64,000 bases of DNA from Candidatus Pelagibacter sp. GTDB taxonomy: Bacteria > Pseudomonadota > Alphaproteobacteria > Paracaedibacterales > CAIOTO01. Of this stretch, positions 16,020 to 64,000 are shown piece after piece. A model generated the notes under the pieces. The model was not told the origin of the DNA. It was given only the letters and a program-made list of their open reading frames with translations, and ran no database searches. The stretch covers positions 245,156-309,155 of the forward strand of contig PNMQ01000004.1 in assembly GCA_013823725.1 (NCBI GenBank), given 5' to 3'. Position 1 is the first letter of the stretch, and every line of letters starts with the position of its first letter. Position numbers and translations under genes: made by a program.

Positions 16020-16112
16020 GGAGAGGTGGCCGAGTGGCTGAAGGCGCCGGTTTGCTAAACCGTTATACGGGTTAAATCCGTATCGAGGGTTCGAATCCCT
16101 CTCTCTCCGCCA
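16020..16112 (+). tRNA. tRNA-Ser(GCT)
   Basis: GGAGAGGTGGCCGAGTGG..., anticodon loop TTGCTAA, long variable arm, GGTTCGAATCCC, encoded CCA. Confidence 0.95.
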
Positions 16113-52239: not shown

Positions 52240-53020
52240 AAAAAGTTTTCCACATTTTATTATAATTTTTATATAAAATTTAATAAATTGCATATATATT
52301 TAATCGTCAGAATTTCGTAATCCTAATAAGTTTAAAACCCTCAGCTTTTAAAAGGTTTTCTTACTCTTTTTGAAATGCGCCTATTTTTTAAGCAAACCGT
52401 TCTGAAGCTATATTTTCTGGGATTGTTAATACATTATTAATATATTATCCACATAGTTTTCCACATTTTTTGTGGAAAACTATTATGTGATAAACGCATG
52501 CATATAAAAAGCTAAAAGATTAAAGTTTGTAATAGGATTACGTATAAACGAGTTTATCGATACTTCTAATCTATGAGTTGATGCTTAACTCATAGATTAG
52601 AAAAGGCTGATTGATGTGTAAAAGAAAGTTGAAAAGATATACCGTCATTTTCTTAACCAAAAAAACAAAGGATTCACAAATAAAAATTATTAAAAAAACA
52701 GAGAGATAGTAAAAAGTTTTCCACATTTTATTATAATTTATTGATAAAATTTAATTAATTATATGTCAAATAAATTAATAGTTTTGGGGAATGCTAATCA
52801 TAGCAAGAACCTTGAATTTTAAAGGGTTTTAAAGCTTCTTTTAAAATGCGCTTATTTTTTAGGCAAACCGATCAAAACGTATATTTTCTAAAGATATTAA
52901 TCGTTTATTAATAGTTTTTCCACATGGTTTTGCACAGAAATTGTGGAAAACTATTCCCATGTTTTTTTAGAATCTTAACCTTTGTTTAATGTTTGGCATA
53001 AATATTTAACGCATTGTTAA
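52240..53020. other. oriC: Candidate replication origin: two diverged ~250 bp repeat copies (52240-52489 and 52711-52962) with DnaA-box-like and CtrA-like motifs
   Basis: TTATCCACA 52445-52453; TTTTCCACA/TGTGGAAAA at 52246, 52457, 52471, 52717, 52916, 52942; TTAA-N7-TTAA at 52426-52440, 52897-52911, 52975-52989, 53006-53020; no ORF; genes diverge from it. Confidence 0.7.
52564..52602. repeat. Perfect 16 bp stem, 7 nt loop inverted repeat between the two origin-like copies
   Basis: TTCTAATCTATGAGTT-GATGCTT-AACTCATAGATTAGAA. Confidence 0.9.
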
Positions 53021-53056: not shown

Positions 53057-55396
53057 TTGATGTATTTTTTGTTGGTATTTTTTAAATTTATATTGAAATC
53101 ATTTTTTGTCTGCTGTTTGTTGAATTTGAGTGTTTCTATAAAGGCGTCTCAAAGTTTACCTTGTGGCTTAGGCGGTACAAAATGTAAGCAATTTACAAGT
53201 TGTATTGACTCAATCAAAATGAAATATTGTTTGAATGGTCAACCTTGTGTGAATTCATTAGATACACATTGTATGATGCCTCCACCGCAATTATTACCTT
53301 GTGGTATGGGTGGAATATTATGTGAATCGGATAAGCAGTGCCTTGAACATCATACTTTTAAAATTTGCAAAGATGGAGATTGTTTAAACAATTCTTCATG
53401 CATAAAAATGGATAAAAACCTTCCCTGTGGTAAAGGTGGTTATCATTGCCCTGAAAATAGAATATGTCTTAAGAAAAATATTAATGAATTTTGTTCTATT
53501 AACGGCAGTGACAACAGTTGTCTTTTTGATGGTGCCTTTTGTGTAAACCCGAAAAATATAGAATGCGGACTTGGAGGAACGCAATGTTCTTTAGGTAAAA
53601 CATGTATGAAAAAAGATAGGCAATCACCATGTTTGAAAGATGATCCCTGTATTTTCGAAAGAGAAAGCACATGCATGGATCCTCACATTGTGATGTGCGG
53701 AAAAGGCGGAACATCTTGTCCAGATAACCAGATATGCATGATAAAAGATAAAGACCAGCCTTGCTTGTCTGGAGAATGCATGTATTCTCTGTCAGAATGT
53801 AGAAATACTGAGCCGTTGAAATGTGGGAATGGCGGCCTTGTTTGTGATCTGACTTCAGATGGAAAACCACAAATTTGTGCTTATCAAAATAAAGAGACGA
53901 GACTTTTTTCTTCTTGTAAAAACGTTAAAACATGTGGAAACCCAACAGAATTAGAATGTAAAACGCCAGAAGATTTAGAGTGTGGACAAGGTGGTCTTAA
54001 ATGCTCCAGAGATAAGAAGTGTATTACGGCTGATAATTCCAGAGTATGTAATTCAGCGCAATGCTGGAATGATTCCACAACGCAATGTAAAAATCCACTT
54101 ATCATGCCTTGTGGAATGGGTGGAATTCAATGCCCTTTTGTGAATGATCCCTCTTTACAAACGGTTTGTTTATTTCAAGAAGAGAAAAATGGAAATTCTA
54201 AAATTTGTGATTCTGTAGATTGTTCTTTAAAATCATCGTGTGTTAATCCTTTAAATCATTTGGAATGTGGGAAGGGAGGAACATTTTGTTCATTACCTCA
54301 AAATGTTTGCGTGACGCCAGAGCATGAACTATGTACGTCAGGGGAATGCACTAAAAAATCAACATGTCAATTTATTCAAGATATTCCATGCGGAAAAGGT
54401 TTTTCAGCTTGCGCATATAAATCTTCTGATATTCATTCAGAGTTACTGAAAAATGTCACATATCTGGCATATGGACAAAATAAATTGCTTTTTTTTGATT
54501 CACAAAAGAAAAAAGTAAAACTGATGGATTTGTCGTATACAGCAAGTACGCAAGAATTAGATATTGCCCTTACCAAGGCTCCTTTTGCTGCCATTATTGA
54601 TCAAAACTCTAATGTTATTTATTTCAATTCTGAAAACTCTACTTTAAATGTTTATGATACTCGTTTAAGCAAAAACAATATTATAGCCGCAAAAAATGAC
54701 GAATTATTTAATTCAGATGATTCAAAAGTTATCCCATGGATTGATCAAGCTTGGGGAGATCCTCAGCCTGGGGGTATTTCAACAGATGATTATGGCAATG
54801 TCTATCTATCAGATAAACAAAATCACGTTATTTGGAAAATTATTGTAGATGAAAAAAATGATATTAAAACATATAGGGGATATATCATTTCTGGAACATA
54901 CCAAAAATCAGGATATTCCAATAACCAAGAACTTGGATTTAATGCCGTTCAAAGTTTATGGAATTCTCCTCATGCATTAGTTACAGACAGATGGGGTAAT
55001 TTGTTAGTATCAGACACATTAAATCATGTTATCAGAATTTTAAAGCCGGCAACGACTGATGGAAAAAGCATTCAATATACGGTTCATGAATACATAGGTG
55101 TTCCTAAAAAATCTGGATTTTTAGGAGATGGAAAAACCTATTCAACTTTAAACAAAGATGTATTACTGAATCATCCTTTGGGACTAGCCGTAGATCCTTT
55201 AGGGAATTTAATCATTGCCGATTCAGGAAATAATAAAATTCGTTTTGTTCCACCTTACATTCCGACAATTAATTCTATTCAAACACCTGTATTAAACGAT
55301 ATTCAAAATGTAGAATTCGATAAAGATGGCAGCATCAATATTTTTTCTCAATTTTATCAAAATTTTAATAAATTGGCTTTAGCATCTAAGCCATGA
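53057..55396 (+). CDS. Exported cysteine-rich CGxGG-module array protein with C-terminal NHL repeats (779 aa, about 10 modules)
   Basis: Hydrophobic N-terminus; repeated [LPI]xCG[KLMQN]GG..C modules; DYGNVYLSDKQNHVIWKI, DRWGNLLVSDTLNHVIRIL, DPLGNLIIADSGNNKIRFV. Confidence 0.9.
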   Translation: MMYFLLVFFKFILKSFFVCCLLNLSVSIKASQSLPCGLGGTKCKQFTSCIDSIKMKYCLNGQPCVNSLDTHCMMPPPQLLPCGMGGILCESDKQCLEHHTFKICKDGDCLNNSSCIKMDKNLPCGKGGYHCPENRICLKKNINEFCSINGSDNSCLFDGAFCVNPKNIECGLGGTQCSLGKTCMKKDRQSPCLKDDPCIFERESTCMDPHIVMCGKGGTSCPDNQICMIKDKDQPCLSGECMYSLSECRNTEPLKCGNGGLVCDLTSDGKPQICAYQNKETRLFSSCKNVKTCGNPTELECKTPEDLECGQGGLKCSRDKKCITADNSRVCNSAQCWNDSTTQCKNPLIMPCGMGGIQCPFVNDPSLQTVCLFQEEKNGNSKICDSVDCSLKSSCVNPLNHLECGKGGTFCSLPQNVCVTPEHELCTSGECTKKSTCQFIQDIPCGKGFSACAYKSSDIHSELLKNVTYLAYGQNKLLFFDSQKKKVKLMDLSYTASTQELDIALTKAPFAAIIDQNSNVIYFNSENSTLNVYDTRLSKNNIIAAKNDELFNSDDSKVIPWIDQAWGDPQPGGISTDDYGNVYLSDKQNHVIWKIIVDEKNDIKTYRGYIISGTYQKSGYSNNQELGFNAVQSLWNSPHALVTDRWGNLLVSDTLNHVIRILKPATTDGKSIQYTVHEYIGVPKKSGFLGDGKTYSTLNKDVLLNHPLGLAVDPLGNLIIADSGNNKIRFVPPYIPTINSIQTPVLNDIQNVEFDKDGSINIFSQFYQNFNKLALASKP

Positions 55397-55442
55397 CCTA
55401 TGCGCATAAATAAATAATAGCTATTTTGATAGAGAGAATCAT

Positions 55443-58400
55443 ATGAAGTTTAATGATTTTAATACAAACAAAAATTTCATTAAAGATATATTGAACAGAA
55501 AAATAAAATTCATTTTCACATTTATATTTTTTATATTATCTAATTTATCTCTGATTCAAGCAGAGAATAAAGCATGTGGAAAAGGAGGTACTGACTGTTC
55601 AGCTGTAAGTTCTTATGCTAGTTGTATTTATCAACCTGTTGGTAAAGACCCTCAATATTGTTTATCTGGTGATTGTCAAAATAGCCCATTTTCTCAATGT
55701 ATTATTCCTCCCATTTCTCTTGTTCCGTGTGGTCAAGGTGGTATTTTGTGTACCGGTGGTAAAGTTTGTGCTCTACCTGATTTATCGGCCTTGTGTGTAG
55801 AGGGACCATGTTCTGTGGATTCTAAATCCCAGTGTGTTGATTCTAAAACTGTAGCATGTGGATTAGGTGGATTATCTTGTCCTCAAAGTTCAGATCCAAT
55901 CCAACAAACGTATTGTATTAAGAATGATAAATCAGCTTTATGTCAATCTGATGATTGCAGGTTAGGTGGAGCATCTTGCCAATTACCATCTTCTTTAAAT
56001 TGTGGTAAGGGTGGATCTAAATGTGAATCTGGTAGTATTTGTAGTCTAACAGCACAAGGTCCTGCTTGTTTATTTGGATCTTGTTTGTCAAATCCTACAA
56101 ATGTTTGCTCTCCTATTGACAAAATTCAATGTGGAAAAGGTGGGACGTTTTGTCCTGATAATTCATATTGTTCAAAATATGATAGCACCTCTTGTAAAAG
56201 TGGAGATTGCTTAACGGATGTAAGGTCTACATGTCAGCCAGCAACAAAGCTATTATGTGGTCAAGGTGGGGTAGCTTGCCCTGAAAATACAGGAACCGTA
56301 TGTTCTCGTGCTGATGAGTCCGGATTTTGCCCTATTGGCGATGCTTGCATGAAAACTTTAGGTATTGTTGGTGACACCATTGGAGCGGCTTGTAGTTCTC
56401 CTACAGCTATTCCATGCGGTAAGGGTGGAACAAAATGTGATAATCCTGCAGAATCTTGTATTTTGAATGATAATTCAGCTTTATGTTTAACTGGAGAATG
56501 TTTACAAGCCTCTGGTGAAAAAGGTGCTTCTTGTAAATCGCCATCTGTATTGCCTTGTGGCAAAGGTGGAACAATGTGCGGGAAATCAAAAGACGGAACA
56601 GATATGATGTGTGTTCTGGCTGATAAAACAGGTTTGTGCACACAAGGTAGTTGCGTATTAAATGGATCTTCTTGTGAATTGCCCAACGTTCTGCCATGTG
56701 GAAAGGGTGGGACAGCATGTCCTCAAAGCGATAAACTTGGTGATCCTTTCGTGTGTATGGTAAACGATAAAAGTGGTTTGTGTACACAAGGCGATTGCCT
56801 AAAAGAAGGTGCAGTGTGTGAATATAAATCTAAACTTCCATGTGGATTAGGTGGAACACAATGTCCCGTTGGAGATGATATTAATGCGCCACAACGATGC
56901 ATATTAAATGATCAATCTGCACTTTGTTTAAGCGGTTCCTGTTTAGAAAACAGTGCATTGGATAAAACAGGATCTTCATGTCAGTCTCCTTTGGTTTTAC
57001 CTTGCGGTTTGGGTGGAACATTTTGTCCTAAAAATGATGATCCATTAAAACAAACTTTATGCGTGCTAAATGATAAATCAAGCGCATGCACAACGGGTTC
57101 TTGCATGAATCCTGATGTTCAGGGCAAACCAATTTCTTCATGTCAATTACCATCTGTGCTTCCTTGTGGTAAAGGTGGAACTATGTGTTCGTTACCGGGA
57201 ACAGTGTGTATGTGGTCTGATAGATCAGAAATTTGTTCTTCAGGTGACTGTATAAATCTGCCCGATATTTCCTGTCAGGATAAAAAATTGCTTCCTTGTG
57301 GTAAAGGAGGATTACAATGCGGTAAATCTGAAAATGGTGAAAATTTATCTTGTCTGTTGAATGATCAATCAGCGCTTTGTACAACTGAATCTTGTATGAA
57401 CAGTTCAGATGCAGGTAAATCAGGCTCTTCATGCCAATTACCTAAATTATTACCGTGCGGTAAAGGTGGAACAACATGTCCTACATCTGCTGATCCAGAA
57501 AAACAGACAACATGTGTTAAAAATGATAAATCAGGTTTATGTTTAACAGGTGATTGTTTAGCAGAAGGCAAAGCTTACTGTGCCTTACCTCAGGTGATGC
57601 CTTGTGGCCGAGGAGGAACAGTTTGTCCAGTTTCTACAAATGCATCATTACAAACAGTGTGTATTCTTAATGATAAAACGGATTATTGCACGGACGGTGA
57701 ATGCATGAGGTCTACCGATCCACAAAAAGGATCTTCCTGTCAATTAGCATCCATTTTACCTTGTGGTAAAGGGGGAAGCTATTGTAAAGATTCGAAAACA
57801 AAATGTATTTTAGCAAATAAAACAAAAGTTTGTGATTCAGGTTCTTGTCTAAAGGATGCAACAAATTCTTGCCAAATATCAGAAACAAGTCTTCCGTGTG
57901 GTAAAGGTGGATTAATTTGTGCAACAGGTCAAGTATGTGTTCTTCCAGACAAATCAATGTGTCGATCTGGTCAGCCATGCGTGGATAGTAATACATTAAA
58001 ATGTGTGCCAATAGCCCAAGCAGACTGTGGCAAGGGTGGAACAGGTTGTAGTGAGCCAGGTGCTGTATGTGTCACATCTGATATCAAAAATAAATGTACA
58101 TCAGGTTCTTGTTTAACAGATGGAAAATCACTTTGTAAGAGTCCTATGCTTTTGCCTTGTGGAAAAGGTGGAACAACATGTCCTACTGCTACAGACCCTA
58201 GTAAACAAACACAATGTATTTTAAATAATAAAACAGATTTTTGTAAATCTGGAGCATGTTTAAATTCCAGTAGTGCAACAACAGGTTCTTCTTGTCAATT
58301 GCCAGATGTTCTTCCTTGTGGAAAAGGTGGATTAGCCTGTAAATCTGGAACGAATTGTTCGACATTTGAAAACAAAATATGCCAAAGTGGCGAATTGTGT

Positions 58401-61325
58401 ATGAGTGATTCAAAATCAAAATGTCAGTCACCTTTGAATATTGTATGTGGATTCGGCGGTATTGCATGTCCTCAAGGTTCGGGTCGGGTTTGCGCATTGG
58501 GTAATTTAACAAACTTGTGTGCTGCAAATGATACGTGTAGGTTGTCAGCTGTTAATATTATGCCCGGTGGTTCTGTCGCACAATGTGTTCTACCTTCTGA
58601 ATTGCCATGCGGAAAAGGCGGTTCGAAATGTAGTGTTCCTAATCCTTCATCTACATCTCCTGTTATGTGTTTAAGAAATGATTTCTTAGTGAAATGTTCA
58701 AGCGGAACATGCATGAATAGTAGCGCTGCTAATGCTACGGGCTCATCTTGTCAAGCTGTTCAAAAACTACCTTGTGGAAAAGGTGGCGCAACCTGTCCAA
58801 AGAGCTCTGATCCATTGAAACAAACATTCTGTATTTTGAATGATAAAACTAAATTATGTGAATCAGGTGCGTGTATGGAAAGTACTGCAGCAGGAAATGC
58901 AGGATCTTCCTGTCAGCTGAAGAGTGTGTTACCTTGCGGAAAAGGTGGATCAACATGTCCAAAAAGTTCTGATCCTACTAAACAAACCCAATGTATAAAT
59001 ATGGATAAGTCAGCATTATGTACATCGGATTCATGTATGGATCCAGATACTGCTGGAAAAGCTAGATCCTATTGTGATTTACCATCTGTTTTACCCTGTG
59101 GTAAAGGTGGGGTGCGATGTGCAAATGCTACAGATACGTGTATGGCAGCAGATAAGAATACAGTATGTACTTCAGGTACATGTATGAATGATTCGACATA
59201 TACATGTCAAGTAAAGCTTATGTTGCCATGTGGATTGGGCGGAGCACGTTGTGATGATACTAAAACAACATGTCTTTTGAATAACAAGACATCTAAATGT
59301 TCAACAGGTTCCTGTTTAGGAAATCCCGTTGTTACAGGATCGACACCTTCAACGAATGTTCCTGCCCAGTGTTTAGATCCGAATTTATTGCCTTGTGGAA
59401 AAGGTGGATTAACATGTCCAACGGGTCAATCTTGTTTGCTTGCTGATCTATCTAACTACTGTACTGGTGGTGATTGTGTTAACCCTGATGTATCAGGCAA
59501 AGTGAAAGCTGTATGCGCTAAATCAACAGAATTACCATGTGGAAAAGGTGGAAGTCGTTGTGCTGAAAGTGCTGTTGCAGGTGATAAAAATGTTTGCGCC
59601 AATAAAGGCACGCCTCCTTCTTTATGCACAGTTAGTACTTGCATGGGAACACCTTCTGCGCCTGCAGAAAATTCAACATGTATGTTAAGCAGTCTATTGC
59701 CTTGTGGAAAAGGTGGAATTGCATGTTCCTCTGGATCAGTATGTGCGAAAAGTGATTTAACAGTATGTCCTAAAAATGATAGGTGTACCTCGATATCTTC
59801 GTCAAAATGTCGCCCTTTTAATCAAGTTATATGTGGTTCTGGTGGCACAATGTGTCCTGCAAATTCTGGAACATTATGTGCATTAACAGATGAATCAGCA
59901 TTCTGTAAACCAGGAGAAGCCTGTATGAGTGATAACAAATCATCTTGCGCAGATCCTGCAGTTATTCCTTGTGGAAAAGGAGGGTCATTATGTCCATCAG
60001 GACAATCTTGTTTAGATGAGAATAATACATTATGTCAAATGACATCTTGTCCATCGAATGCAACTTCAAATGCATCTGCTGCAAAGTGCGCTAATCCTGG
60101 GGCATGCATGAGTGATAGTAAATCAACCTGCAAACCAAGCTTGTGCGGTCAAGGGGGAACAGCATGTCCTGCTTCAAGTGATGATGTTACAAATAAAATC
60201 AATAAAGTTTGTATGTTAAACGATTTCAGTGGACTATGCACAACTCCTGATTGTATGTTTAGTACCATTTATGGAAAAGCAGGTGCGTCATGTCAATCGG
60301 ATGTTATGCTTCCTTGCAGCCAAGGCGGTTTAGCTTGTGGATTTAAGTCAGAGGTTTATTTGGGATCGACTACTCAAAATGGAAGCTCGGGTGATGGTGG
60401 TTTGGCAACAAGCGCTTTGTTGAAAAACCCAGCGAGCATGGTGTTTGATAGCAACGATACGGCGTATGTAGTTGATGTCGGCAATAAGAATATTCGGAGC
60501 GTTGATTCTTCAGGTAAAGTGTATACGTTGCCACAACCCGCTGCTGCGCTATTAAGTGCTAACGCAGTCTTTACTCCGCAATGGATTGTTGTGAATAGTA
60601 AAAATCAGGTTATAGTTTATGATTCTGACAGTCGTAAGGTTTTGGCCTATGATTCAGGAACGCGTACATGGTCTAATGCATTTGCTGATAGTTTATCAAT
60701 ATTTGATAATCAATCTATTGTTGCAAGTATGACAATCGACTTGAAAGATACATTATATATAGCCTTAAAGGATAAAAAGACTATTTTAGGAGTAACCCCT
60801 GCAACAGGCAATAGTGCTTCAGTGCAATATGGATCTTCCTTTAATGTAGCAGAGAATATTGCCGATCCTACAGCGATGGCCATTGATGAATCTAATAATT
60901 TGATTGTTCCAGAAAGAAGTCAAAAAAAGATTTTAAAATTCTCTTCCTCTGCAACAACTCCCACGAAATATACTTCAGCAGTTGTAGCAGGATCAGGAAG
61001 TTCAGCATTTGACTTAGATTGTGTTAACGCCACAAGATCTGGAATGCCAGGTTTGAAAGCAGTCTCAATAAGTAAAAACGGGCATATGTATATTCTGGAT
61101 GATTCTAAAAAAGTGATACGTTTGATTCCTTCAAAAAGTCAATCTATTACAACTATATCAGGCAATCAATCGCCGAGTAATCGTACAGCGTGTTCTACGA
61201 ATGTCTCAAATACGGCTTTTGCTCAGAGTTTTCAATCGCCACAATTTATAGCAAATGATAGACAAGGTAATATCTATGTTGTTGATGGATCCGCGGTTTA
61301 TAAAATCACACCAGATAAATTTTAA
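55443..61325 (+). CDS. Giant exported cysteine-rich CGxGG-module array protein with C-terminal NHL-type propeller (1960 aa, about 33 modules)
   Basis: N-terminal TM/signal; modules such as LPCGKGGTTCPTSADPEKQTTCVKNDKSGLCLTGDCLAEGKAYC; C-terminal DSNDTAYVVDVGNKNIRSV, DRQGNIYVVDGSAVYKI. Confidence 0.92.
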   Translation: MKFNDFNTNKNFIKDILNRKIKFIFTFIFFILSNLSLIQAENKACGKGGTDCSAVSSYASCIYQPVGKDPQYCLSGDCQNSPFSQCIIPPISLVPCGQGGILCTGGKVCALPDLSALCVEGPCSVDSKSQCVDSKTVACGLGGLSCPQSSDPIQQTYCIKNDKSALCQSDDCRLGGASCQLPSSLNCGKGGSKCESGSICSLTAQGPACLFGSCLSNPTNVCSPIDKIQCGKGGTFCPDNSYCSKYDSTSCKSGDCLTDVRSTCQPATKLLCGQGGVACPENTGTVCSRADESGFCPIGDACMKTLGIVGDTIGAACSSPTAIPCGKGGTKCDNPAESCILNDNSALCLTGECLQASGEKGASCKSPSVLPCGKGGTMCGKSKDGTDMMCVLADKTGLCTQGSCVLNGSSCELPNVLPCGKGGTACPQSDKLGDPFVCMVNDKSGLCTQGDCLKEGAVCEYKSKLPCGLGGTQCPVGDDINAPQRCILNDQSALCLSGSCLENSALDKTGSSCQSPLVLPCGLGGTFCPKNDDPLKQTLCVLNDKSSACTTGSCMNPDVQGKPISSCQLPSVLPCGKGGTMCSLPGTVCMWSDRSEICSSGDCINLPDISCQDKKLLPCGKGGLQCGKSENGENLSCLLNDQSALCTTESCMNSSDAGKSGSSCQLPKLLPCGKGGTTCPTSADPEKQTTCVKNDKSGLCLTGDCLAEGKAYCALPQVMPCGRGGTVCPVSTNASLQTVCILNDKTDYCTDGECMRSTDPQKGSSCQLASILPCGKGGSYCKDSKTKCILANKTKVCDSGSCLKDATNSCQISETSLPCGKGGLICATGQVCVLPDKSMCRSGQPCVDSNTLKCVPIAQADCGKGGTGCSEPGAVCVTSDIKNKCTSGSCLTDGKSLCKSPMLLPCGKGGTTCPTATDPSKQTQCILNNKTDFCKSGACLNSSSATTGSSCQLPDVLPCGKGGLACKSGTNCSTFENKICQSGELCMSDSKSKCQSPLNIVCGFGGIACPQGSGRVCALGNLTNLCAANDTCRLSAVNIMPGGSVAQCVLPSELPCGKGGSKCSVPNPSSTSPVMCLRNDFLVKCSSGTCMNSSAANATGSSCQAVQKLPCGKGGATCPKSSDPLKQTFCILNDKTKLCESGACMESTAAGNAGSSCQLKSVLPCGKGGSTCPKSSDPTKQTQCINMDKSALCTSDSCMDPDTAGKARSYCDLPSVLPCGKGGVRCANATDTCMAADKNTVCTSGTCMNDSTYTCQVKLMLPCGLGGARCDDTKTTCLLNNKTSKCSTGSCLGNPVVTGSTPSTNVPAQCLDPNLLPCGKGGLTCPTGQSCLLADLSNYCTGGDCVNPDVSGKVKAVCAKSTELPCGKGGSRCAESAVAGDKNVCANKGTPPSLCTVSTCMGTPSAPAENSTCMLSSLLPCGKGGIACSSGSVCAKSDLTVCPKNDRCTSISSSKCRPFNQVICGSGGTMCPANSGTLCALTDESAFCKPGEACMSDNKSSCADPAVIPCGKGGSLCPSGQSCLDENNTLCQMTSCPSNATSNASAAKCANPGACMSDSKSTCKPSLCGQGGTACPASSDDVTNKINKVCMLNDFSGLCTTPDCMFSTIYGKAGASCQSDVMLPCSQGGLACGFKSEVYLGSTTQNGSSGDGGLATSALLKNPASMVFDSNDTAYVVDVGNKNIRSVDSSGKVYTLPQPAAALLSANAVFTPQWIVVNSKNQVIVYDSDSRKVLAYDSGTRTWSNAFADSLSIFDNQSIVASMTIDLKDTLYIALKDKKTILGVTPATGNSASVQYGSSFNVAENIADPTAMAIDESNNLIVPERSQKKILKFSSSATTPTKYTSAVVAGSGSSAFDLDCVNATRSGMPGLKAVSISKNGHMYILDDSKKVIRLIPSKSQSITTISGNQSPSNRTACSTNVSNTAFAQSFQSPQFIANDRQGNIYVVDGSAVYKITPDKF

Positions 61326-61352
61326 ACAATGCATATAGTGAAAAATAAGATC

Positions 61353-64000
61353 ATGAAAAAAAGAAAACAAAATATGGTTTACTCGTCTTCTAAAATGAGA
61401 AATTTCATAAAAGTAGAAGTTGTTAATAAACGTTTAACCATCTTAAATTTTATTAAAATGGTATGTTTCTATCTTTTTTCGTTATTTTGTTTTTCTCAAA
61501 TGTGGACAGTTGCTTCATCTAGCTCTTTGCAAAATGGGGTAACATCGGTAGTTTCCCCCGTTTGTGGAAAAGGGGGAAATACTTGCCCGAATGGACAGTA
61601 CTGTGTTTATGACGCTCCGGGGGAATCTCCTAGCTATTGTATATCTGGATCATGTACACTAAGCCCGTTTGCAAGTTGTGTATCCATTCCTCCATTTGGT
61701 CTAGTTCCCTGTGGTTCAGGTGGAGTCATGTGCCCAACTGGAAAAACATGTATGAAAAGCGACGAAAAAACACCATGTGTCAGTGGTGATTGTTTTATAG
61801 ATTCTAATTCTAAATGCATGGATCAATCAGCTTTAGCGTGCGGAAACGGTGGTGTGAATTGTTCGCTATTTTCAACACCAGAAGACCCTAAAATTTGTAT
61901 GCAAAGCGATTTAAAAACTCCTTGTGTTTCTGGAAATTGTAGTTTGTTTGGTGCAACTTGCGTAAGCATGAATCAATTGGGTTGTGGGAAAGGCGGCACA
62001 AAATGCGATTCTTCGAGTCAAGTATGTGTGCAAACGGATGGAAAAACGCCATGTGTTTCAGGTGATTGTCTTAAGGATGTGGCTAGCAAATGTGTGTCTA
62101 AAACAACGTTGGAGTGTGGAAAAGGCGGAATTGGATGTGAAGAAGGAAAAGTATGTGCATCACCAGATAAACGATTAGTAGTTCCTTTTGATGATTTAGA
62201 ATTTTTGAATAATAGCTCTAATGTTTGCGATTTACCTTCTAATTTATTGTGCGGACATGGTGGAACTGCGTGTGAACCCGGATCAAACACGGTTTGCGCC
62301 TTAGCAGATTTTTCTGGGTTGTGCAAAATCAATCAACCCTGTACTTATTCAAGCATTTCTTCATTATTTAATCAGTCTAGTCAAAAAATAGCTGGGTTAT
62401 GTGCTCCTGTTGATAAAATTCCCTGTGCATCGGGTGGGTCATTATGTACGGATCCTGTAGCGAAATGTATTTTAGATGATCAGTCAGATTTTTGTGTTAC
62501 AACAGAATGTCAAAACAATGTTCAGTCAGGTATCAAGAAAGCATCTTGCCAGATGCCAGACGTATTACCCTGTGGTAAAGGCGGATTTAAATGTCCTTTA
62601 AAAGACAATGATGGGAATGCTTTAGGTTGTATTAAAAATGACCAATCAGATCTTTGTAAGTCTTCTGATTGTGCAACATCTCAGTCATCTTGCCAGCTTT
62701 TATCAGTTTTAGAATGCGGTAAAGGGGGGCTAACTTGCCCGCAGGATAAAGATTCTATGAATCAGAGAAAATGTATTCAAAATGATAAAATGTCTGAGTG
62801 CAACGATATTAATTGCAGTGAGAAGTCTACATGTCAATTACCATCAGTTTTACCATGCGGTAAAGGCGGTTTTGCATGTCCAATTTCACCTGATCCTTTA
62901 AAACAAAAAGTTTGTGTTAAAAATGATTTTTCAGATTTTTGCAAAGATGATAGCTGTTCAAAATCAAGTGTTTTAGGAAGTGCTTCATCATCATCATGTG
63001 AATTGCCTTCAAGGTTACCATGTGGAAAAGGTGGATCTGTTTGCCCTAAAGAATCAAATGCCTCTTTACAAACAATATGTATGTCTAAAGACTTTTCATC
63101 ATCGTGCAAAGATGGTGATTGTATGACACTAAAGAACGACGGCACTTCTGATTTGGTGTGTGATTTACCTTCAAAATTACCATGTGGAAAAGGCGGAATA
63201 ACTTGCACCAATCCTGCACATAAGTGCGTTTCTAAGGATAAAAAAATTGAATGTTTTTCTGGAAAATGCATGAATGATAAAAATTATACATGCCAATTAA
63301 GTACTGTTTTACCATGTGGAAAAGGTGGAATTAGTTGTCCTTCTTCTGTTGGTTCAAACCAAACAGTTTGTATATTAAAAGACAAAACAGCACGTTGTAA
63401 TCGTTCAGAATGTAGTTCGGAATCCACGTGTCAATCGACATTGGTTCTGCCGTGTGGGAAAGGTGGTTCTTTTTGCCCTAAATCTTCAAATCCTGCAGAA
63501 CAACAGTTTTGTATTAAGAAAGATGCAACAGGTCTTTGTTTGTCCGGTGATTGTTTGAAAAATGGTGCATCATGCCAACTGAAAACAGCACTGAAATGTG
63601 GTTTTGGAGGGTTAGTTTGTCCTACAGCAGCAGATCCAAAAAAACAAACAAAATGTATTTTAAAAAATAAAACGGCGTTATGTGCTAATGCCACTTGTAG
63701 TACAGGATCTTCCTGTCAATTACCTGAAATCCTGCCTTGTGGTAAAGGCGGTAAATTTTGTCAAAATTTAAAATTATCTTGTATTAATAAAGAAAACACA
63801 GCGATTTGTAATAGTGAATCTTGTTTTAAAACGTCAACCAATAGTTGTAAATTATCCAGCCAATTTTTACCTTGTGGTAAAGGTGGAAATAGATGTTCTT
63901 CTTCAGGTCTAGTTTGCGTTAAATCTGATTTGACGATTTGCAAACAAGGTGAAAGTTGTAATTCTGTTCCATCTTCAAAATGTGTTATACCTTCTGAAGC
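61353..64000 (+). CDS. Third CGxGG-module array paralog, truncated by window end (at least 882 codons, about 17 modules; not in ORF track)
   Basis: ATG at 61353, frame open to the window end; MKKRKQNMVYSSSK...VCGKGGNTCPNGQYC...LVPCGSGGVMCPTGKTC...LPCGKGGNRC. Confidence 0.9.
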   Translation, partial: MKKRKQNMVYSSSKMRNFIKVEVVNKRLTILNFIKMVCFYLFSLFCFSQMWTVASSSSLQNGVTSVVSPVCGKGGNTCPNGQYCVYDAPGESPSYCISGSCTLSPFASCVSIPPFGLVPCGSGGVMCPTGKTCMKSDEKTPCVSGDCFIDSNSKCMDQSALACGNGGVNCSLFSTPEDPKICMQSDLKTPCVSGNCSLFGATCVSMNQLGCGKGGTKCDSSSQVCVQTDGKTPCVSGDCLKDVASKCVSKTTLECGKGGIGCEEGKVCASPDKRLVVPFDDLEFLNNSSNVCDLPSNLLCGHGGTACEPGSNTVCALADFSGLCKINQPCTYSSISSLFNQSSQKIAGLCAPVDKIPCASGGSLCTDPVAKCILDDQSDFCVTTECQNNVQSGIKKASCQMPDVLPCGKGGFKCPLKDNDGNALGCIKNDQSDLCKSSDCATSQSSCQLLSVLECGKGGLTCPQDKDSMNQRKCIQNDKMSECNDINCSEKSTCQLPSVLPCGKGGFACPISPDPLKQKVCVKNDFSDFCKDDSCSKSSVLGSASSSSCELPSRLPCGKGGSVCPKESNASLQTICMSKDFSSSCKDGDCMTLKNDGTSDLVCDLPSKLPCGKGGITCTNPAHKCVSKDKKIECFSGKCMNDKNYTCQLSTVLPCGKGGISCPSSVGSNQTVCILKDKTARCNRSECSSESTCQSTLVLPCGKGGSFCPKSSNPAEQQFCIKKDATGLCLSGDCLKNGASCQLKTALKCGFGGLVCPTAADPKKQTKCILKNKTALCANATCSTGSSCQLPEILPCGKGGKFCQNLKLSCINKENTAICNSESCFKTSTNSCKLSSQFLPCGKGGNRCSSSGLVCVKSDLTICKQGESCNSVPSSKCVIPSE

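What the first reader, a model, noticed from the sequence alone, without database searches (positions are those of the whole stretch)
53057..64000. Tandem locus of three giant six-cysteine CGxGG array proteins
Three consecutive same-strand genes encode exported proteins made almost entirely of ~45-50 aa modules with the pattern C-G-[KLQ]-G-G-x-x-C-P...C-(I/V)-x-N-D-K-S-x-L-C-x-x-G-x-C-(M/L)...S-S-C. By eye I count about 10 modules in the first, about 33 in the second, and at least 17 in the third before the window ends. I do not recognise the module as a named family. Six Cys per module in an exported protein suggests a disulfide-knotted rod or surface fibre, possibly a host-facing matrix or adhesin of an intracellular bacterium. 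The repetition and paralogy are seen directly; the function is inference.
Basis: partly seen in the sequence, partly recalled or inferred. Interest (0 to 1): 0.92.

Follow-up and report, generated by a model that had tools for sequence, protein, structure and literature searches.

The report
Giant disulfide-rod proteins with propeller heads
A reduced-genome alphaproteobacterium, related to bacteria that live inside protists, spends about 21 kb on four neighbouring exported giant proteins made of some 120 copies of an undescribed six-cysteine module, three of them ending in a beta-propeller, which look like rigid stalks carrying a binding head.

Summary
There are four tandem same-strand genes, not three, with 9, 32, 34 and at least 45 modules. 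Of 120 scored modules, 115 have exactly six Cys. C1-x6-C2 never varies (115/115), and both glycines of CGxGG are conserved in 121/121 occurrences. The fourth gene runs off the contig, and its tail probably starts another contig.

No Pfam, NCBIfam or PDB family matches the module. Four consecutive modules give a confident AlphaFold model (pLDDT 88.9) with no PDB fold match. Cysteines appear and disappear in pairs, which suggests C1-C2, C3-C6 and C4-C5 pairing. DsbB and a DsbA-like protein are encoded. Near-identical modules show strong purifying selection.

One same-family genome (record titled Candidatus Paracaedibacteraceae) has a one-module version fused to the same propeller. Two others expanded a homologous CxNGG module into giant tandem genes without a propeller. 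Nothing convincing appeared in class- and phylum-wide samples outside that family.

Best reading: Sec-exported, Dsb-oxidised rods that hold a propeller head away from the cell. Surface location and ligand are inferred. New protein family; new variant of the repeat-stalk-plus-head design.

The parts
53057..55396 (+). Gene 1 (p1), 779 aa: signal peptide, 9 six-Cys modules, C1-C2 half-module, NHL propeller; start TTG 53057 or ATG 53060
   Evidence: Pfam NHL E 8.5e-11
53162..54385 (+). Module array of gene 1 (9 modules)
54389..54412 (+). C1-C2 half-module (CGKGFSAC) at the array/propeller junction of gene 1
54416..55393 (+). NHL beta-propeller of gene 1
   Evidence: Pfam PF01436 41.8 bits, cut-off 20
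55443..61325 (+). Gene 2 (p2), 1960 aa: signal peptide, 32 modules, half-module, NHL propeller
55575..60314 (+). Module array of gene 2
   Evidence: AF2 model of modules 7-10 pLDDT 88.9
59970..60143 (+). Exceptional 8-Cys module (one extra Cys pair)
60315..60338 (+). C1-C2 half-module (CSQGGLAC) before the propeller of gene 2
60375..61322 (+). NHL beta-propeller of gene 2
   Evidence: Pfam 22 bits, cut-off 20; Foldseek to Pizza6/PknD/TRIM NHL propellers, E 1e-13 to 1e-10
61329..64000 (+). Gene 3 (p3), 17 complete modules inside the window; whole gene 1986 aa in L002:11485-17445 with 34 modules and an NHL propeller (49.8 bits)
62115..62249 (+). Exceptional 4-Cys module of gene 3 (C4 and C5 both missing)

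Best explanation
The locus encodes four paralogous Sec-exported giant proteins. Each ~42-55 aa module folds into a small three-disulfide domain (proposed pairing C1-C2, C3-C6, C4-C5), oxidised in the periplasm by the genome's DsbA-like and DsbB proteins. Rows of 9 to at least 45 modules stack into protease-resistant semi-rigid rods. In genes 1-3 the rod ends in an NHL beta-propeller (through a C1-C2 half-module in genes 1 and 2) that is the likely binding head; gene 4 probably ends in an 8-Cys cap instead. Most likely the proteins are displayed on the cell surface or released, and hold the propeller away from the cell to contact the eukaryotic host or neighbouring cells, with module number setting the reach. 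Shown: anatomy, homology, purifying selection, confident module fold prediction, propeller identity. Inferred: disulfide pairing, surface location, rod shape, ligand, function.
For: Six-Cys framework kept in 115/120 modules while other positions diverge to ~40-50% identity between modules. dN/dS about 0.1-0.2 between near-identical modules of gene 4, e.g. 0.01/0.12 and 0.03/0.20. AF2 of four consecutive modules: pLDDT 88.9, pTM 0.68. C4+C5 are lost together in two modules of genes 3 and 4, a pair is gained in one module of gene 2, and C4-C5-less 4-Cys modules are interspersed in the G003/G004 arrays. Half-modules with only C1+C2 sit before the propeller of genes 1 and 2 and of the G001 protein; gene 1's mature chain has no other unpaired Cys for them. 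DsbB (E 3.7e-23) and a DsbA-like protein (E 9.7e-8) are encoded. N-terminal signals, no other likely TM segment. NHL propellers by profile and fold. Relatives join NHL propellers to PATR repeats (PF12951), a signature of autotransporter passengers, so NHL domains are put on exported proteins in this group. One secretin is encoded as a possible outer-membrane exit.
Against: No anchor, autotransporter barrel or dedicated secretion gene was found at the locus; periplasmic residence is not excluded. The secretin stands next to citrate synthase and a TPR protein, with no other type II secretion gene seen there. Gene 4 probably lacks a propeller. The propeller model is poor (pLDDT 55), although the fold match is strong.
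Confidence: 0.5

Rival explanations
1. Envelope armour: the arrays form a disulfide-linked protein coat in or on the outer membrane that stiffens a transmissible cell form, working like the cysteine-rich envelope proteins of chlamydial elementary bodies.
For: Intracellular relatives (PMC11909080); very high Cys load with DsbA-like and DsbB proteins encoded; disulfide cross-linking of envelope proteins is critical for infection in Chlamydia, where DsbA/DsbB form a redox pair (PMC6752827).
Against: Even Cys number per module, with pairs gained and lost inside modules, argues for intramodular rather than cross-linking disulfides. Propeller heads are unexplained. No sequence relation to a Pfam outer-membrane Cys-rich family.
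Confidence: 0.2
2. Soluble secreted or vacuole-filling proteins that act on the host as decoys, protease-resistant ligands or matrix, not attached to the bacterium.
For: No membrane anchor; propeller and small disulfide domains are common in extracellular ligands (general knowledge); secretin present.
Against: No dedicated secretion locus nearby; nothing distinguishes release from display.
Confidence: 0.15
3. Metal- or thiol-buffering proteins: the cysteines bind metal or act as a redox sink.
For: More than 700 cysteines in these proteins.
Against: Conserved spacings are C-x6-C and C-x4/5-C, not metallothionein CxC or CxxC clusters; no metal-binding family match; exported to an oxidising compartment with DsbB; confident AF2 fold; the propeller is unexplained.
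Confidence: 0.05
4. Selfish or neutral repeat expansion with no specific function.
For: Recent 129/258/387-bp repeat expansion at the end of gene 4.
Against: dN/dS about 0.1-0.2; four intact ORFs of 779 to at least 2138 aa with signal peptides; a second, independently expanded array in sister genomes.
Confidence: 0.03

Closest known systems
NHL-repeat beta-propeller proteins (PF01436), e.g. extracellular domain of M. tuberculosis PknD
   Same: C-terminal domain of genes 1-3 is an NHL propeller by profile and, for gene 2, by fold.
   Different: None of those matched carries the six-Cys array.
G001 one-module NHL protein (JAUYTZ010000019.1, L025:943-2631)
   Same: Same module, same half-module, same propeller order.
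   Different: One module instead of 9-34; a long linker before it.
CxNGG array proteins of G003/G004 (L060, L059)
   Same: Homologous six-Cys framework (hhalign probability 91.7, E 7.8e-7; their HMM finds window modules at E 4e-8); tandem giant signal-peptide genes.
   Different: No NHL; two of the proteins end in a Gln-rich, coiled-coil-like tail; 4-Cys modules interspersed; divergent sequence.
NCBIfam NF041328 (MXAN_6577-like cysteine-rich protein)
   Same: Weak Cys-pattern match to gene 1.
   Different: 16 bits against a cut-off of 100: not a member.
Teneurins (EGF-repeat stalk followed by an NHL propeller)
   Same: Works-like resemblance: Cys-rich repeat stalk, then NHL.
   Different: Modules are not EGF; no YD shell; animal proteins.
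Chlamydial cysteine-rich envelope proteins
   Same: High Cys load in a relative of intracellular bacteria, with DsbA-like/DsbB proteins.
   Different: No sequence match; modular array plus propeller.

Membership tests
NHL beta-propeller (PF01436) | Profile match above the curated cut-off | tested here: met
   p1 41.8, p2 22, p3 49.8 bits; cut-off 20
NHL beta-propeller (PF01436) | Propeller fold | tested here: met
   Gene 2 C-terminus: Foldseek to NHL/Pizza propellers, E down to 1.8e-13, probability 1.00; model only pLDDT 55
MXAN_6577-like cysteine-rich (NF041328) | Score above cut-off 100 bits | tested here: not met
   16 bits
EGF-like domain | Profile match | tested here: not met
   Best single module E 0.27 for EGF_CA and 0.09 for EGF_Mua-3; one of 26 modules each
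EGF-like domain | Disulfides 1-3, 2-4, 5-6 | tested here: inconclusive
   Paired gain and loss suggest 1-2, 3-6, 4-5; not measured
Any solved Cys-rich family (PDB) | Sequence or fold match | tested here: not met
   hmmsearch none at E<=1; Foldseek none at E<=0.001; Foldseek is weak on small Cys-rich domains
Autotransporter (type V) | C-terminal beta-barrel domain | tested here: not met
   No barrel in Pfam scans of genes 1-3
Teneurin | YD shell plus TEN_NHL | tested here: not met
   TEN_NHL 44.5 bits in p3 (above 27.1) and 21.3 in p1 (below); no YD repeat
Chlamydial Cys-rich outer-membrane proteins | Pfam match | tested here: not met
   No match
Chlamydial Cys-rich outer-membrane proteins | Intermolecular disulfides in the envelope | not testable with these tools
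   Needs biochemistry
Cys-array module family (window modules plus G001/G003/G004) | Shared six-Cys framework with significant profile similarity | tested here: met

The most novel reading that the evidence does not exclude
A lineage of symbiotic Alphaproteobacteria invented a new three-disulfide domain and twice expanded it into giant tandem rod proteins (once with propeller heads, once with coiled-coil-like tails) that form a dedicated host-facing organelle or coat.
Probability: 0.3. Interest if true: 0.8.

Novelty: new variant of a known kind. Interest (0 to 1): 0.62.

Why it matters
A genome of only 1.26 Mb gives at least 1.6% of its length to one undescribed disulfide module, repeated about 120 times, under purifying selection and found only in one family in these searches. 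If the arrays are surface stalks, they are a testable host-interface system in a group whose host-interaction mechanisms are described as poorly understood (PMC11909080). The module is also a natural example of a small, tandemly stackable, probably three-disulfide domain made by a bacterium.

Tried and rejected
Searches that gave nothing: genome contigs and viral contigs with A2; plasmids and phages by tblastn; PDB by sequence; Foldseek PDB for the module model. The best hit outside the family is G536, E 7.7e-5, covering 24 of 39 profile positions in a 127-aa frame, taken as chance. Rfam: only tRNAs and one probable overlap artefact.

The sliding-window module alignments A4 and A6 fell out of register because their rows overlap; they were replaced by the non-overlapping blocks of A7. 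oriC upstream of gene 1 was considered because of a DnaA-box-like cluster, but GC skew does not switch there. Promoter and terminator scans were not clearly above shuffles. Literature searches found no description of these proteins. Metallothionein-like and neutral-repeat readings were rejected as listed under rivals.

Full report
OBSERVATION. The three ORFs are at the stated coordinates. The window is G000:C2:245156-309155 of a 1,256,217-base genome in 9 contigs. The contig goes on for 9.8 kb beyond the window: gene 3 is 1986 aa, and a fourth gene of at least 2138 aa runs off the contig end. Contig C4 begins with a 174-aa open frame of the same modules, overlapping the end of C2 by exactly 45 bp with the frame kept. 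It ends in two more modules and a cap with 8 Cys and no propeller. The assembly very probably breaks inside near-identical 129-bp repeats, so gene 4 may be longer than seen, and its join to C4 is inferred.

MODULES. There are 120 scored modules, 115 with exactly six Cys. C1-C2 spacing is 6 in 115/115; C4-C5 is 4 or 5 in 113/115; C3-C4 is mostly 7 or 8; C2-C3 and C5-C6 vary in length; the C6-C1 linker is 7 in about nine of ten. Positions +3 and +4 of CGxGG are Gly in 121/121. Most modules are only about 35-60% identical to their best match in a paralog, while the last ones of gene 4 reach 98%, a recent expansion. Between those near-identical units dN/dS is about 0.1-0.2, so the protein sequence is constrained.

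DISULFIDE LOGIC. Two modules (gene 3 no. 5, gene 4 no. 6) lack C4 and C5 together but keep C1, C2, C3 and C6; they may share one origin. One module of gene 2 has one extra Cys pair. In G003/G004, 4-Cys modules with the C4-C5 hairpin deleted are interspersed with 6-Cys modules. Half-modules with only C1 and C2 stand before the propeller in genes 1 and 2 and in G001. In mature gene 1 no other unpaired Cys exists. The simplest pairing is C1-C2, C4-C5 and therefore C3-C6. In the AF2 model the residues around C3 and C6 are strands and C5 lies in a short helical turn, which is compatible but not a measurement. The genome encodes DsbB (E 3.7e-23) and a DsbA-like protein (E 9.7e-8).

STRUCTURE. Four consecutive modules folded with a 12-row in-register alignment reach mean pLDDT 88.9 and pTM 0.68. 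Foldseek finds no PDB match at E<=0.001. The C-terminal part of gene 2 is modelled poorly (pLDDT 55) but matches NHL propellers with E down to 1.8e-13. Pfam places NHL above cut-off in genes 1, 2 and 3.

RELATIVES. The module HMM A1 finds, among 38 genomes (own plus relatives), only its own locus and one module in G001. G001's record is titled Candidatus Paracaedibacteraceae, a family of Holosporales. That protein is signal peptide - linker - one module - half-module - NHL, a plausible picture of the ancestral form. At weaker E the HMM led to G003 and G004, same family. They carry tandem same-strand genes (in G004 579, 903 and 1672 aa plus a further one running off the stretch read) of CxNGG six-Cys modules, without NHL; two of them end in Gln-rich coiled-coil-like tails. 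Homology of the two module types is supported by hhalign (probability 91.7, E 7.8e-7) and by the CxNGG model recovering window modules at E 4e-8. Samples of 385 class and 399 phylum genomes with both models, plus plasmids, phages and viral contigs, gave nothing convincing. The class and phylum samples overlap in part. The module appears lineage-restricted and expanded at least twice.

CONTEXT. Genes 1-4 follow each other closely (46, 3 and 128 bp gaps), consistent with an operon. All four start with a hydrophobic signal and have no other likely TM segment. Related genomes have NHL propellers joined to PATR repeats, so this group repeatedly places NHL propellers on exported proteins. A secretin is encoded elsewhere and is nearly universal in the order, so it is only a candidate route out. 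The order Holosporales is described as obligately associated with eukaryotes, mostly protists (PMC11909080); that this genome lives inside a host is inferred from kinship and size.

HOW IT PROBABLY WORKS. Sec export, oxidation by DsbA-like/DsbB proteins, rod formation by stacked three-disulfide modules, propeller head at the C-terminus as ligand-binding part, reach set by module number. Shown: anatomy, homology, constraint, confident module fold prediction, propeller identity. Inferred: pairing, location, rod shape, ligand, function. The main rival is a chlamydia-like disulfide envelope (PMC6752827), which the even intramodular Cys pattern makes less likely.

VERDICT. Observation confirmed. 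The module is a new family; the design is a new variant of repeat stalk plus head.

Noticed in passing
window 52240-52955: A 245-bp direct repeat (73% identity, 471-bp spacing) upstream of gene 1 holds a cluster of DnaA-box-like TTWTNCACA sites (6 of 12 matches on that strand in the window, one exact TTATCCACA at 52445). GC skew does not switch here, so an origin is not supported.
   Followed up: partly
L059 and L060: G003/G004 carry their own tandem giant six-Cys/four-Cys array genes; an upstream gene on the same strand looks like a peptidoglycan L,D-transpeptidase by eye.
   Followed up: partly
L061:4696-9996, L062:2087-5461: NHL propellers fused to PATR passenger repeats, with no autotransporter barrel seen in the frames.
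   Followed up: partly
L037:7215-8453: NHL-only paralog (412 aa, signal-like N-terminus) elsewhere in the same genome.
   Followed up: no
L036:3824-4862: Class 3 lipase gene apparently split into two overlapping frames, possibly a pseudogene or frameshift.
   Followed up: no
window 16020-16109: Rfam plastid psbl-rps4 match antisense to a tRNA, probably an artefact of a tRNA-containing model.
   Followed up: no
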